NCBI RefSeq assembly: GCF_000003815.2
Contig: NC_049982.1
Location: 4,735,511 to 4,799,510 of the forward strand
Reading direction: 5' to 3'
Length of the DNA stretch: 64,000 bases
From: Branchiostoma floridae
Taxonomy: Eukaryota > Chordata > Leptocardii > Amphioxiformes > Branchiostomatidae
The notes under the pieces: generated by a model
What the model saw: only the letters and a program-made list of their open reading frames with translations
Databases searched by the model: none
What the model was told of the DNA's origin: nothing
Translations under genes and position numbers: made by a program
Part shown: one piece after another, positions 6,540-62,855 of the stretch
Position numbering within the stretch: position 1 is the stretch's first letter
Layout: the number at the start of each line of letters is the position of its first letter

Positions 6540-9500
6540 TAGATTTTAAACTGTTGTGGATGTTCACAAGTGTCATTATAAGTGTACGTGAAGACGTCTA
6601 GACAAGGTTGGGTGCCCTTTTATCTTACTGACGTGAACTTAACTGCGGAAATCGGACTTCCTCACCGGCGTCCCTCACCCAGACACCACAACAATGGCTT
6701 CCAGCGTGTTCAGGTACTCCATGGACTTCATGAGGAGTCTCAAGCCGAGCCATGCGACAACATGTCCACAGCTCAAGCAACTCCTAAGAGACAACGGAAT
6801 CCTTCGGGGCTCAAGCAGGCCGAGAGGCAAGAAAGCCGGTAGGAACTGTTTGCGTAAAATTGAAACTGTTGTAGGAAGGAGAAATGACTTGATTACATTC
6901 CACCGCCCTCCCTTGTTGTCTTCACCCGTTTCCCGCGCAAACTTGACGAGCATCAAAACAGTAAGCAATCACCAGCCCAGCTGTACCCCGGCTGTTCACC
7001 AGCCCAGCTGTACCACTGCTGTTCCGACATTCCTACTCACTAATCCACGATCTCTTGTCAACAAAATTGACGAATTCCAGGCCGTTCTCACAAGCAATAA
7101 CGTGGATATTGCTGCGGTCTCCGAGTCCTGGTTCATGCCCTCCACACCACATGAACAACAGTCAGTCGAAGGATATACCTTGTACTCTAAATGTCGCACA
7201 GATCGTCGTGGAGGTGGGGTAGCTGTGTATGTACATGACAGCATATCGTCTCGTGTACTGACTGAAATCACTGTCCCAGAACAGCTGGAATGTCTTTGGG
7301 TCTACGTGCGACCACACCGCCTGACTCGTCAGTTCTCGTCCATTGCATTGTGTGCTTTGTACTCACCTCCTCAGTCACCACACGAGGAGGAACTCGTAGA
7401 ACACATCATTTCAGCGGCAGATCAACTGCGTACAAGCTTTCCGAACATCGGTCTTGCCTTCCTGGGGGACTTCAATCACCTGAACATCCACAGCATTCTC
7501 CTTGACCGTGAACTCTCACAAGTCGTCCAGAGCTGCACAAGAGGCAACGCCACCCTTGATCTCATCGTGACAAACATGAAGACGTGCTACAAACCCCCCA
7601 AAATCCTCCCACCGATCGGTCTTAGTGACCACTGTTGTGTTCTCTGGCAAGCCCAGGTTAAACTTAAGCAAAACACCTGCACAAAGAAGCTCATTCGTCC
7701 CATTCGGGAACCGAATCTGAGCCACTTTGGGAGATGGATTACTACCCATACTTGGGAGGAGGTTTTAGCTGCAACCACAACTGAAGAAAAGGCAGATATA
7801 TTCTACAGTACACTGACGTCTGCCATCGCGGAGTACTTCCCCACCAAGACTGTTAAACAACACCACTGTGACAAACCCTGGATAACTCCAAGAATCAAGC
7901 ACCTTATACAGCAGAGACAGAGAACATTCACAAATGGAAGTTGCACCGCCATGTCAAAGTTCTACAGAAACAAAGTTCAAAAAGAAATCCGGAAGGCTAA
8001 AAACAAGTTCTACACGATCGACATTGAGGGCCGCAGGAAGGACAATCCTAGGGCATGGCACAACGGACTCAAGTCGATTTGTAACATGAACAGGAAAGCC
8101 AGTCGGATCTACGCTCCCGGCATTGATCAGAACGACCACGCAGCCTTAGCCAACGCCATTAATGCCAAGTTTGCAAGCGTGTCTCAGTCACTCCCGCCGC
8201 TGGATCTGTCGTCTCTCCCATCATTCCTTCCGGCCCAACCGTTACCTGTTATCCAGGAATGGGAGGTTTACTCACACCTACGCGCCACCAACACTTACAA
8301 GAGTCCCGGACCTGATAACGTTCCTGCCTTCCTCCTCATGGAATTCGCGTGTGAACTGAGCACTCCTCTGTGTGACTTACTTAACACGTCGTTGAAAGAA
8401 GGCACCGTACCCCGTCAATGGAAGGAAGCCAATGTGGTTCCACTGCCAAAGTCCACCCCTCCAAACATCGACGAACTTCGGCCCATCTCTCTCACTCCAA
8501 TGTTGTCTAAACTCTGTGAACGCTTCGTGACAAATTGGATAGTACAGGACATATCGCCAAGACTCGATCACCGCCAGTTTGGGGGAAGGAGGCACAGATC
8601 AACAACACACGCACTGGTCAGTTTAGTGGACTTCCTCTACAAATCCACGTCAGTGTCAAAGTCAATCTGCACCCTTGTTACAACAGATCTGTCTAAAGCT
8701 TTTGACAAAGTGGACCATACCATTGCCATTCGTTCCCTACTCGATCTTGGTGTTCGGCCGGCTGTCATCCCCTGGATTTGTAGCTTTATTACCGACAGAC
8801 GGCAGAGAGTGATGTACCAGGGAGAACTCTCGGACTGGCTCTACCTCAGCTGCGGCGTAGCGCAAGGAACACTTCTTGGTCCAGTTATTTTCATGGCATT
8901 AATTGATGGAGCGCTTCGCGAAGTCGCCGACCGTTGGAAGTTTGTTGACGACATGAACATTGCACAGACCCGGTTAGTACGTCAGCCATGTACACTACAG
9001 CCCACACTCGACAACCTTACCACATGGGTCAGCGACCACAAGATGGCTTTGAACCCAAAGAAATGTTTCGTACTCCGTGTGTGCTTCATGAAGGCACCTC
9101 CCCCTCCGCAACCACTGATGATCAGCGAACAACCCCTGAAGTGCGTGTCACACGTCAAAGTGCTAGGTTTAACTGTGCAGAACGACCTTAAATGGAACAT
9201 TCAAGTCAGTAACATGCTCACGTCAGCCAACAGGAGATTGTACATGCTTCGTCGGCTCAAGCGTTTTGGTGTGTCTCTCGCTGACCTTAAGTCGGTATAC
9301 ATGTCGTATGTGAGACCTTCCCTTGAGTACGCGGTTCCTGTGTGGCACTCGTCAATAACCAAGGACCAGGCAGCAAAACTGGAGAGAATCCAAAAGAGAG
9401 CATGTAAAATCATTCTCGGAATTCACTACACTGACTATGCTTCAGCACTTTCAACACTAGACCTCAGCACACTAGCTGACCGACGAATCAGTATCTGCGC

Positions 9501-10002
9501 CACTTTCGCGGAGTCGTTACTACGATCAGAGTTCCGGGACTGGCTCCCTCCATCCAGACAGCACGTGACTGGACGTTCCACTCGCAGCTCAGAGAAACTG
9601 GACATGCCACTATGCCGTACGGACAGATACAAGAACTCGCCTATACCATATCTTGTGAACTTACTGAACAAGTGACTACCCCCGAACTGAGCTAGCACTA
9701 ATCCTAATGTATGTTTCACTGCATTGATAAGACACTTGATTGTATGTAACTATAGTGTTGTACGACAACCCTTCGTTTCGTTATTTTTATAATCCTCACG
9801 GAACGACGAGTTCCCTTCAATAGTATGGGTACAATTCTCAAATGCTTGTAATTGTACTTCCTTTTAAGATTGTAAGATAACGAAGAGATTTTATCATGGC
9901 TGGTTTTAATGTACATAATTGTAAATGACGGCGCAATTCAGCTACTGCTGCGATGCCGTGCATCTGTAATAAAACTTGTCAAACTTGTCAAACTTGTCAT
10001 GA
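6540..10002 (+). mobile_element. CR1-like non-LTR retrotransposon
   Basis: The 5' boundary is not defined; I place it in the roughly 150 bp before the long ORF. The 3' end follows the ORF after about 290 bp of UTR. It consists of AATAAA and then about three copies of an octamer (ACTTGTCA) at 9970-10000. CR1-type LINEs characteristically end in short octamer repeats rather than poly(A). The single ORF is intact. I see no separate ORF1, so the copy could be 5'-truncated or belong to a one-ORF family. Confidence 0.85.
6694..9675 (+). CDS. LINE endonuclease/reverse transcriptase polyprotein, intact
   Basis: This 993-residue ORF copies the element by target-primed reverse transcription. From about residue 111 there is an apurinic-type endonuclease: NPRSLVNKIDEF, SESW (catalytic Glu), FLGDFNHLN (Asp/Asn) and GLSDHC (Asp-His). 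The reverse transcriptase spans about residues 530-800, with KSPGPDNVP, LRPISLTPMLSK, TDLSKAFDKVDH, GVAQGTLLGP and the active-site box FVDD at residues 750-753. The C-terminal part with PSLEYAVPVWH and RACKIILG is typical of CR1/L2-group elements. The N-terminus (residues 20-60, CPQLKQLLRDNGI and a basic stretch) resembles a SAP-type DNA-binding motif, which is a guess. Residues about 93-110 contain a tandem nine-residue repeat (HQPSCTPAV, HQPSCTTAV). There is no internal stop or frameshift, so the copy looks young. Confidence 0.93.
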   Translation: MASSVFRYSMDFMRSLKPSHATTCPQLKQLLRDNGILRGSSRPRGKKAGRNCLRKIETVVGRRNDLITFHRPPLLSSPVSRANLTSIKTVSNHQPSCTPAVHQPSCTTAVPTFLLTNPRSLVNKIDEFQAVLTSNNVDIAAVSESWFMPSTPHEQQSVEGYTLYSKCRTDRRGGGVAVYVHDSISSRVLTEITVPEQLECLWVYVRPHRLTRQFSSIALCALYSPPQSPHEEELVEHIISAADQLRTSFPNIGLAFLGDFNHLNIHSILLDRELSQVVQSCTRGNATLDLIVTNMKTCYKPPKILPPIGLSDHCCVLWQAQVKLKQNTCTKKLIRPIREPNLSHFGRWITTHTWEEVLAATTTEEKADIFYSTLTSAIAEYFPTKTVKQHHCDKPWITPRIKHLIQQRQRTFTNGSCTAMSKFYRNKVQKEIRKAKNKFYTIDIEGRRKDNPRAWHNGLKSICNMNRKASRIYAPGIDQNDHAALANAINAKFASVSQSLPPLDLSSLPSFLPAQPLPVIQEWEVYSHLRATNTYKSPGPDNVPAFLLMEFACELSTPLCDLLNTSLKEGTVPRQWKEANVVPLPKSTPPNIDELRPISLTPMLSKLCERFVTNWIVQDISPRLDHRQFGGRRHRSTTHALVSLVDFLYKSTSVSKSICTLVTTDLSKAFDKVDHTIAIRSLLDLGVRPAVIPWICSFITDRRQRVMYQGELSDWLYLSCGVAQGTLLGPVIFMALIDGALREVADRWKFVDDMNIAQTRLVRQPCTLQPTLDNLTTWVSDHKMALNPKKCFVLRVCFMKAPPPPQPLMISEQPLKCVSHVKVLGLTVQNDLKWNIQVSNMLTSANRRLYMLRRLKRFGVSLADLKSVYMSYVRPSLEYAVPVWHSSITKDQAAKLERIQKRACKIILGIHYTDYASALSTLDLSTLADRRISICATFAESLLRSEFRDWLPPSRQHVTGRSTRSSEKLDMPLCRTDRYKNSPIPYLVNLLNK

Positions 10003-45073: not shown

Positions 45074-45351
45074 GTAAGAAGACTTGACTTGTGACTCGGT
45101 ATTCAAAGGTTTGTAGAACAGTGTAAGAAGGAGAAGAAAGTTTCATGAATCCCCTTGATGAATCTGAACACGCCACTCCGGCATGTTTTTTTTCAGAGCT
45201 GGATTGTCATCAGGCCGTGAAACCTACCTGTCTTCTGTGCAGCTGGGTAAAAAAAACATATCGTAGTGGGGAGAAACGAAAGCATGTTGTACATTCATTG
45301 GTTGTTTTATGGCTGTCTAATGTGACTATTCAGGAGCTGGCCTTGGAAAAG

Positions 45352-61786: not shown

Positions 61787-61934
61787 TAAGAAGACTTGAC
61801 TTGCGACTCGGGATTCAAAGATTTGTAGAATAGTGTAAGAAGGAGAAGAAAGTTTCATGAATCTGAACACGCCACTCCGGCATGCATAATTTTTTCAGAG
61901 CACTGCCTGGACTGTCATCAGGCCGTGAAACCTA

Positions 61935-62396
61935 TGTAACAGTGGTGTTCAAGGACTGCTAAAAACCGAAGACGCCTAACGGCTTAAGCCTTTATGGCCG
62001 AACGGTTTGCACGTTCGATTTGTGATCCGGCTGCCCGGGTTTGGCGCGGGTTCGAATCCCGGGAGTCGGGGTGTTGTTTCTTTCTGTTCTTACTCGCCCC
62101 TCTGGTTGTTTCACTGGTTCCCACGCCGGCCCTGTGATTAACAGGCTAGTATGTGCCACACAGGGATGTCGAACTCGGAGATTCGAGGACGAATCTTGAA
62201 AAGAAAAGGGGGAGTAGTGTAACAGTGGTGTTCAAGGACTGCTAAAAACCGAAGACGCCTAACGGCTTAAGCCTTTATGGCCGAACGGTTTGCACGTTCG
62301 ATTTGTGATCCGGCTGCCCGGGTTCGGCGCGGGTTCGAATCCCGGGAGTCGGGGTGTTGTTTCTTTCTGTTCTTACTCGCCCCTCTGGTTGTTTCA
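61935..62396 (+). mobile_element. TRIM-type miniature LTR retroelement with tRNA-like LTRs
   Basis: The LTRs are 61935-62113 and 62218-62396, both 179 bp, both TGTAACAG...GTTTCA, with one difference (T/C at about 62042). The target duplication CCTA lies at 61931-61934 and 62397-62400. The 104-bp interior starts one base after the LTR with TGGTTCCCACGCC (PBS-like) and ends in a polypurine tract (GAAAAGAAAAGGGGGAG) three bases before the second LTR. There is no coding capacity. Each LTR carries a tRNA-like stretch with an A box (TGGCCGAACGG, 61995-62005) and a perfect B box (GGTTCGAATCC, 62049-62059 and 62332-62342). Without these sites it could be read as a duplicated tRNA-derived repeat. Confidence 0.85.
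61988..62073 (+). other. tRNA-like sequence inside LTR 1 (second copy at about 62271-62356)
   Basis: The A-box region resembles class II (Ser/Leu) tRNAs and the B box is perfect. The anticodon arm pairs poorly and I cannot close a proper acceptor stem. It is therefore a promoter-bearing tRNA relic, not a tRNA gene. Confidence 0.6.
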
Positions 62397-62855
62397 CCTA
62401 CTTTTCCTCTGTGTAGCTGCGTAAGATCATACCGTAGTGGGGAAAAGATGTCATATATTTGTTGTAATGTTTGGCTGGTAAAAGCTACGATTGTTCATTG
62501 ACGTAGAAAATGTAAACAGGTAGAGGGTCAATAGGGGTTATTAGATTTGTTTGATTTTTGAGTACTAGACATGAAGCTGTGTGGCATGGAATCGTGAGGT
62601 ACCTGTGCAATGTTTTTGATCGACGTTTAGTAACCAGGTTCACAAATGCTGCTATAAAAATAATCCAGTTTTCTGTCGTACGTGTACTACAAACCTCTAT
62701 GTGCGCCCCGACCCGAAAGTTCGTGCCCAATGCTCACATCTGGAATCCATTGCCGCCCTGAAGCCAGAGGGGGAGGGTGTGAATTTCACGGGACGGTTCA
62801 CTAACTGTTATGGTGTTACTCTCAAGACATATACACCATCATACAACCTACTTTC

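What the first reader, a model, noticed from the sequence alone, without database searches (positions are those of the whole stretch)
61935..62396. Miniature LTR retroelement whose LTRs contain a tRNA-like Pol III promoter
Two 179-bp TG...CA repeats (178/179 identical) flank a 104-bp interior that begins with a TGG PBS-like site and ends with a polypurine tract, all inside a CCTA duplication. This is the anatomy of a TRIM. Unusually, each LTR holds A and B boxes of a tRNA-type promoter. The closest known parallel is the plant Cassandra TRIMs, whose LTRs carry 5S rRNA promoter sequence. A tRNA-bearing counterpart in an animal would be a hybrid of SINE-like transcription and LTR-type replication. 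The near identity of the LTRs implies recent insertion.
Basis: partly seen in the sequence, partly recalled or inferred. Interest (0 to 1): 0.9.

Follow-up and report, generated by a model that had tools for sequence, protein, structure and literature searches.

The report
Mini LTR element with tRNA-like promoter
A 462-bp mobile element, probably from a lancelet, copies itself like a tiny retrovirus but carries tRNA-type promoter motifs in its ends; it is a new member of the known Helenus group, and some copies still hold a reverse copy of the tRNA that primed them.

Summary
Window 61935-62396 is a complete TRIM: two 179-bp TG...CA LTRs (one mismatch), a 104-bp interior with PBS and polypurine tract, and a CCTA target duplication. 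Paralogous empty sites with a single CCTA lie in the same window.

It is one of many copies in a 513-Mb animal genome, probably Branchiostoma (inferred). There are 439 polypurine/3'LTR junctions (5 in the reversed control) and 334 LTR starts of its own type. Of 74 LTR pairs called, 55 have exact 4-bp duplications. Target sites are weakly palindromic about the duplication centre.

New evidence on replication: the PBS fits host tRNA-Glu(CTC). At 34 of 41 exact sites the tRNA complement directly follows a TRIM-type LTR-end hexamer; ten reach full length, seven without mismatch over 75 nt including the unencoded CCA. I read this as read-through into the primer.

The kind is known: Helenus/TRIMp3 (Kojima 2024, PMC10886601), which does not mention Branchiostoma. 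So it is a new member in an apparently unreported host lineage. Pol III transcription is inferred only, box A support is weak, and no autonomous partner was found.

The parts
61931..61934 (+). Target site duplication CCTA, left copy
   Evidence: single CCTA in paralogous empty sites of the window
61935..62113 (+). 5' LTR, 179 bp, TG...CA
61991..61995 (+). TTTAT just before box A; most other LTR subfamilies have TTTT here
61995..62005 (+). Box A-like motif TGGCCGAACGG in 5' LTR
   Evidence: motif definition from Kojima 2024
62049..62059 (+). Box B motif GGTTCGAATCC in 5' LTR
62114..62217 (+). Interior, 104 bp, too short to code for the needed proteins
62115..62129 (+). Primer binding site, 15 nt complementary to host tRNA-Glu(CTC) with CCA added
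62182..62199 (+). TTCGAGGACGAATCTTGA, could read F-E-D-E-S-stop; possible remnant of a Gypsy pol end (inference)
   Evidence: intact in 93 of 113 sampled junctions
62199..62214 (+). Polypurine tract AAAAGAAAAGGGGGAG
62218..62396 (+). 3' LTR, 179 bp
62278..62288 (+). Box A-like motif in 3' LTR
62332..62342 (+). Box B motif in 3' LTR
62397..62400 (+). Target site duplication CCTA, right copy
45199..45276 (+). Paralogous empty site (83% to the joined flanks), single CCTA

Best explanation
[quoted passage not shown] Inferred: RNA polymerase III starts in the 5' LTR from the tRNA-like box A/box B promoter and reads through the interior into the 3' LTR. Indicated by genomic fossils: mature tRNA-Glu(CTC) with its added CCA anneals at the PBS and primes minus-strand DNA. 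Inferred from anatomy: the polypurine tract primes the plus strand, and proteins of an unidentified Gypsy-type element do the work. Shown: copies sit at weakly palindromic sites with a 4-bp duplication, as a retroviral-type integrase leaves them.
For: Anatomy, and empty sites in the same window. Dispersed copies: 45 near-full-length matches from the 40 scored of 1073 candidates; 439 junctions versus 5 in control; 334 LTR starts versus 0 in control. 55 of 74 non-passenger LTR pairs have exact 4-bp duplications, none longer; mismatched flanks agree in 1.1%. Target symmetry peaks exactly at the duplication centre, 1.10 versus next best 0.65 of 37 centres. LTR pairs are young: 21 of 55 without a substitution, 37 of 55 with at most one. 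Primer: the PBS matches host tRNA-Glu(CTC) gene L142 plus CCA over 15 nt; tRNA complement runs on from the PBS in L075 (71 nt), L109 (68), L107 (55), each without mismatch, and L130 (45, one mismatch), and in L140 to the tRNA's 5' end; 34 of 41 exact sites genome-wide follow a TRIM-type LTR-end hexamer, about 0.1 expected with equal base frequencies (my arithmetic); ten are full length, seven of them exact. Promoter: box B in 54 of 55 copies and 14 of 17 subfamily representatives versus 1.8% shuffled; no AATAAA/ATTAAA and no TATAA in any of 55 3' LTRs.
Against: No transcript data. Box A is found in 14 of 17 representatives but also in 36% of shuffled LTRs. Column conservation does not single out box A, box B or the T-run before box A (box B is misaligned there between subfamilies). 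No autonomous element with the same termini was found. Of 121 junctions, 36 gave no callable LTR pair; 19 of the 74 pairs lack a duplication, among them two further passenger copies (L016, L021), inner units of arrays, and pairs with nearly identical LTRs such as L111, L107, L121. Of the 34 tRNA sites the TRIM LTR end was read directly in four (L075, L107, L109, L130); the others rest on a hexamer that other LTR elements could share.
Confidence: 0.82

Rival explanations
1. An ordinary TRIM transcribed by Pol II, whose tRNA-like stretch is a passive relic of a SINE that once landed in an LTR.
For: No tRNA fold is recognised in the LTRs; box A is weakly supported and neither box is a conservation peak; no transcripts were available.
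Against: No TATAA and no AATAAA/ATTAAA in 55 of 55 3' LTRs; box B kept in 14 of 17 representatives; no TTTT inside the 462-bp window element, though 34 of 55 copies have one.
Confidence: 0.2
2. A duplicated SINE or tRNA repeat moved by a LINE.
For: Box A/B-like motifs; tandem arrays of LTR-interior units at some loci.
Against: PBS, polypurine tract, TG...CA termini, exact 4-bp duplications in 55 of 74 pairs, palindromic targets, tRNA-primer fossils, no A-rich tail on the window copy.
Confidence: 0.02
3. The tRNA-Glu stretches beside the PBS are not read-through of the primer but one chimeric copy that was later amplified.
For: The element could have captured a tRNA once and propagated it; only five such loci were read beyond the pattern.
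Against: Five loci read end the tRNA at five different points (45, 55, 68, 71 and 75 nt); the 13 rows whose letters were printed show six LTR-end types; CCA is present although genes L139 and L142 lack it.
Confidence: 0.07

Closest known systems
Helenus (TRIMp3), Kojima 2024, PMC10886601 (abstract, results, discussion, figure legends and tables read)
   Same: TRIM with tRNA-derived box A/B sequence in the LTRs, PBS and polypurine tract, 4-bp duplications in animals, tRNA 3'-end primer; solo LTRs and tandem arrays reported; tRNA-Glu is among the primers named for bivalve Helenus.
   Different: Branchiostoma does not occur in the paper. Here read-through of the primer is visible in copies, target symmetry was measured, and TTTT before box A recurs; none of these appeared in the sections read.
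Cassandra (plants; passages of PMC7215508)
   Same: TRIM with a Pol III-type promoter in its LTRs and tandem arrays.
   Different: 5S rRNA-derived sequence; none was found here. Its paper reports Pol III terminators in the LTRs; the window copy has no TTTT.
Ajax (nemerteans; Kojima 2024)
   Same: Animal TRIM with a small-RNA promoter in its LTRs.
   Different: 5S rRNA-derived, 5-bp duplications.
Other animal TRIMs (bivalves PMC6934838, Echinococcus PMC4558846, ant PMC3532108; search listing only)
   Same: Miniature LTR anatomy.
   Different: I did not read these papers; the abstract starts shown mention no small-RNA promoter.

Membership tests
Helenus / TRIMp3 | Two short LTRs flanking a short non-coding interior | tested here: met
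   179 + 104 + 179 bp
Helenus / TRIMp3 | tRNA-derived box A (TRGCY, YGG) and box B (GGTTC) in the LTR | tested here: met
   TGGCC...CGG and GGTTCGAATCC in both LTRs; across subfamilies box B is strong, box A weak
Helenus / TRIMp3 | PBS complementary to a host tRNA and a polypurine tract | tested here: met
   tRNA-Glu(CTC), 15 nt; tract AAAAGAAAAGGGGGAG
Helenus / TRIMp3 | 4-bp target duplications in animals | tested here: met
   55 of 74 pairs, none longer
Helenus / TRIMp3 | PBS shared with an autonomous Gypsy element | tested here: inconclusive
   L131/L135 has a reverse transcriptase domain (RVT_1) and the PBS TGGTTCCCACACCGG, but other LTR and tract sequences
Helenus / TRIMp3 | Functional Pol III promoter | not testable with these tools
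   no RNA data; Kojima also leaves it unproven
Cassandra | 5S rRNA-derived sequence in the LTR | tested here: not met
   no 5S match by cmscan
tRNA-derived SINE (SINE2) | Single unit with LINE-type tail and no LTR, PBS or polypurine tract | tested here: not met
Functional tRNA gene | Cloverleaf recognised by tRNA models | tested here: not met

The most novel reading that the evidence does not exclude
The LTR may place a Pol III start and a Pol III stop almost on top of each other. A TTTT tract sits at LTR positions 54-59, directly before box A, in 13 of 17 subfamily representatives, against 21% of shuffles. RNA started just upstream would pass it in the 5' LTR and stop at it in the 3' LTR, giving a roughly 295-nt RNA with a 10-16 nt terminal repeat (my estimate), enough for strand transfer without polyadenylation. 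The young window subfamily replaced it by TTTAT, and would read on to the TTTT at 62402 in its flank; this and the unremarkable column conservation of the tract speak against it. Such RNAs, primed by tRNA-Glu, would also leave LTR-plus-full-tRNA insertions as recurrent dead ends.
Probability: 0.25. Interest if true: 0.7.

Novelty: new member of a known kind. Interest (0 to 1): 0.5.

Why it matters
If the host is a lancelet, it adds an apparently unreported chordate branch to Helenus. More usefully, the genome keeps molecular fossils that name the primer (tRNA-Glu-CTC) and point to tRNA-primed, integrase-type replication of an element whose promoter looks SINE-like. That makes the open question of how a Pol III transcript enters LTR-type replication testable in a species with young, nearly identical copies.

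Tried and rejected
Autonomous partner: four searches and follow-ups. GGGGGAGTAGTGTAACAH gave 5 places, all TRIM relatives or fragments. A pattern excluding the TRIM interior gave 2 places: one lies at a TRIM already sampled, the other was read and is a TRIM relative. A tRNA-Glu PBS pattern excluding the TRIM interior gave 7 places: L129 and L132 follow TRIM-like LTRs, L130 a short LTR remnant, L131 is a reverse-transcriptase-bearing LTR element sharing only the PBS, L126 and L128 have other upstream sequence and no second LTR in the 9.9 kb fetched, which in one case holds runs of N, L127 is unclear. GAGGACGAA...GGGGGAG gave 5 places (control 1); three were read and are TRIM relatives, two (C5, C8) were not read.

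Column conservation as a promoter test failed: box A 0.55, box B 0.40 (misaligned), mean 0.66; the window over the T-run ranks 67th of 169. T4 absence as evidence for Pol III failed as first framed: 34 of 55 duplicated copies contain TTTT, mostly at one place before box A. Mapping the transcription start from fossil junctions failed: L075 and L109 resume in the LTR at different points, L107 in the interior. cmscan and ARAGORN did not recognise the LTR's tRNA-like region. A fold of the supposed transcript was moderately stable (z -2.38) and decides nothing. Host identity is inferred: 513,431,437 bases in 431 contigs, contigs C1-C19 of chromosome size (17-35 Mb where a length was shown); 19 chromosomes in B. 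floridae is from a passage of PMC12373286; its assembly size is recalled.

Full report
Observation. The window holds, at 61935-62396, two 179-bp direct repeats that differ at one base (62042 T, 62325 C), starting TGTAACAG and ending TTTCA. They flank 104 bp that open with C and then TGGTTCCCACGCCGG, and close with AAAAGAAAAGGGGGAGTAG. CCTA stands on both sides. The joined flanks match four other places of the window, best 45199-45276 (83%), each running through the site without the insert and with a single CCTA. The stretches around these places are duplicated units in a region with several C2H2 zinc-finger frames (one confirmed by Pfam). So the insert is real and precise, and its LTRs are nearly identical.

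Family. The host genome (G000, 513,431,437 bases) was searched. A 462-bp query scored 40 of 1073 first-look candidates and returned 45 near-full-length matches at 96-100% and one partial one. The junction of polypurine tract and 3' LTR occurs 439 times at up to 3 mismatches, against 5 for the reversed control. LTR starts of the window's own type occur 334 times at up to 2 mismatches, control 0; I could not separate solo LTRs from paired ones, as the matching junction count never ran. The sample studied is the 100 places listed (exact matches, contigs C1-C6) plus 22 of the 46 places, with overlap. In it 121 distinct junctions were examined and 85 gave LTR pairs. Eleven of these share flanking bases and are taken as one passenger copy. 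Of the other 74, 55 have exact 4-bp duplications and none longer; mismatched flanks agree in 1.1%. The 19 without include two more passenger copies (L016, L021), inner units of arrays, and some pairs with nearly identical LTRs. LTR pairs are young: 0 substitutions in 21 of 55, at most one in 37 of 55. The bases around the 55 target sites are symmetric about the centre of the duplication (score 1.10; next best of 37 centres tested 0.65), as with retroviral-type integrases (recalled).

Subfamilies. Greedy clustering at 88% identity gave 17 LTR representatives, some truncated, nearly all sharing the first 11 bases. Most PBSs are of the tRNA-Glu type; 4 of 74 pairs (L011, L020, L053, L103) instead have TTGGCGCCC[AG]ACGTGG, which I recall as tRNA-Lys type. 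Tandem LTR-interior arrays occur at L004, L012/L013, L031/L032, L072, L087, L098 and L112 and at L136.

Primer. The tRNA-Glu 3' end occurs at 60 places, control 0; 40 of these are the TGG-bearing places below and 20 are not. ARAGORN names L139 and L142 tRNA-Glu(CTC); neither encodes CCA. The window PBS matches L142 plus CCA over 15 nt. In L075, L109, L107 and L130 the PBS continues into the reverse complement of the tRNA for 71, 68, 55 and 45 nt, the last with one mismatch; in L140 it runs to the tRNA's first base. Genome-wide, 41 exact places carry TGG plus the tRNA complement (71 at up to one mismatch, control 0), and 34 of the 41 directly follow YTWCAH, the form of the TRIM LTR ends (about 0.1 expected with equal base frequencies, my arithmetic). 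The seven others were not shown to be TRIM-linked; one of them, C2:28393617 (L141), has TTTCAG there. The whole 75-nt complement occurs 25 times at up to 3 mismatches: ten are among the 34, including all seven exact ones, and the other 15 are not; one of these is gene L139. In HIV-1 plus-strand synthesis normally stops at m1A58 after 18 nt, while unmodified tRNA is fully copied in vitro (passages of PMC13191261). I therefore read these loci as read-through into the primer, fixed by integration or joining. How frequent this is stays open: among 85 distinct Glu-type PBS sites in fetched loci, 3 carry the extension, and one of those (L130) was fetched by a PBS pattern; L109 fell outside that count, being near the edge of its locus.

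Promoter. Box B is present in 54 of 55 duplicated copies and in 14 of 17 representatives, against 1.8% of shuffled LTRs. A box A-like motif is in 14 of 17 but also in 36% of shuffles. No 3' LTR of the 55 has AATAAA/ATTAAA or TATAA. No tRNA fold is recognised in the LTRs. TTTT lies directly before box A in 31 of 55 copies and 13 of 17 representatives, versus 21% of shuffles; 19 of 55, the window subfamily, have TTTAT instead. Neither box nor this tract stands out in column conservation. The window element contains no TTTT; the first is at 62402. Pol III use is thus likely but unproven.

Mobiliser. No autonomous element with these termini was found. An element with a reverse transcriptase domain (L131/L135; RVT_1, E 8e-30) shares the tRNA-Glu PBS only. 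The interior end TTCGAGGACGAATCTTGA, intact in 93 of 113 sampled junctions, could be the last codons of a Gypsy pol (inference). Kojima assigns animal Helenus to Gypsy on PBS similarity and notes that 4-bp duplications set animal families apart from fungal ones.

Known kind. Kojima 2024 defines Helenus as TRIMs with tRNA-derived LTR sequence and names TRIMp3 for TRIMs with Pol III promoters; Branchiostoma, amphioxus and lancelet have no occurrence in its main text. Searches for amphioxus with TRIM (0 papers), for Helenus and TRIMp3 (3 papers) and for amphioxus LTR/tRNA-derived elements (5 papers, passages of two seen) showed no report of this family. The library lacks most subscription papers; Repbase and the paper's supplements could not be checked. 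Four searches for genomic copies of primer-tRNA read-through listed no title or abstract start describing it; I read only passages of PMC13191261 and the abstract of PMC12220202, which reports a reverse-transcribed tRNA-Gly beside HIV proviruses. So this is a new member of a known kind, with unusually direct replication evidence.

Noticed in passing
L022, L025, L036, L044, L049, L057, L065, L066, L070, L096, L097 (also L016, L021): One TRIM insertion with unlike LTRs (78-84% identical) recurs with the same flanking bases; in the 3-kb loci compared with L022 (L016, L021, L025, L036, and also L009, L026, L030) the likeness runs over 1-2 kb, so it travels as a passenger in a larger repeat.
   Followed up: partly
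L102, L100: Elements with intact 4-bp duplications but LTRs of two different subfamilies (15 substitutions each), suggesting gene conversion or chimeric reverse transcription.
   Followed up: partly
L028 about 396-1459: The interior of a relative holds an expanded minisatellite of a roughly 30-bp unit; the window element carries one unit.
   Followed up: no
L069: TRIM LTR present in inverted orientation around a shortened interior.
   Followed up: no
L136: Tandem array of at least four LTR-interior units, mostly 286 bp apart.
   Followed up: no
window 36864-63836: Several C2H2 zinc-finger frames in duplicated units (one frame confirmed by Pfam); the TRIM sits in one such unit.
   Followed up: partly
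window 6643-9675: Open frame of 1010 aa with a reverse transcriptase and an endonuclease match below its cut-off, probably a non-LTR retrotransposon.
   Followed up: no
L132:1664-1727 (- strand): tRNA model match of 31.5 bits (cut-off 29) beside a TRIM fragment, possibly another tRNA-derived repeat.
   Followed up: no
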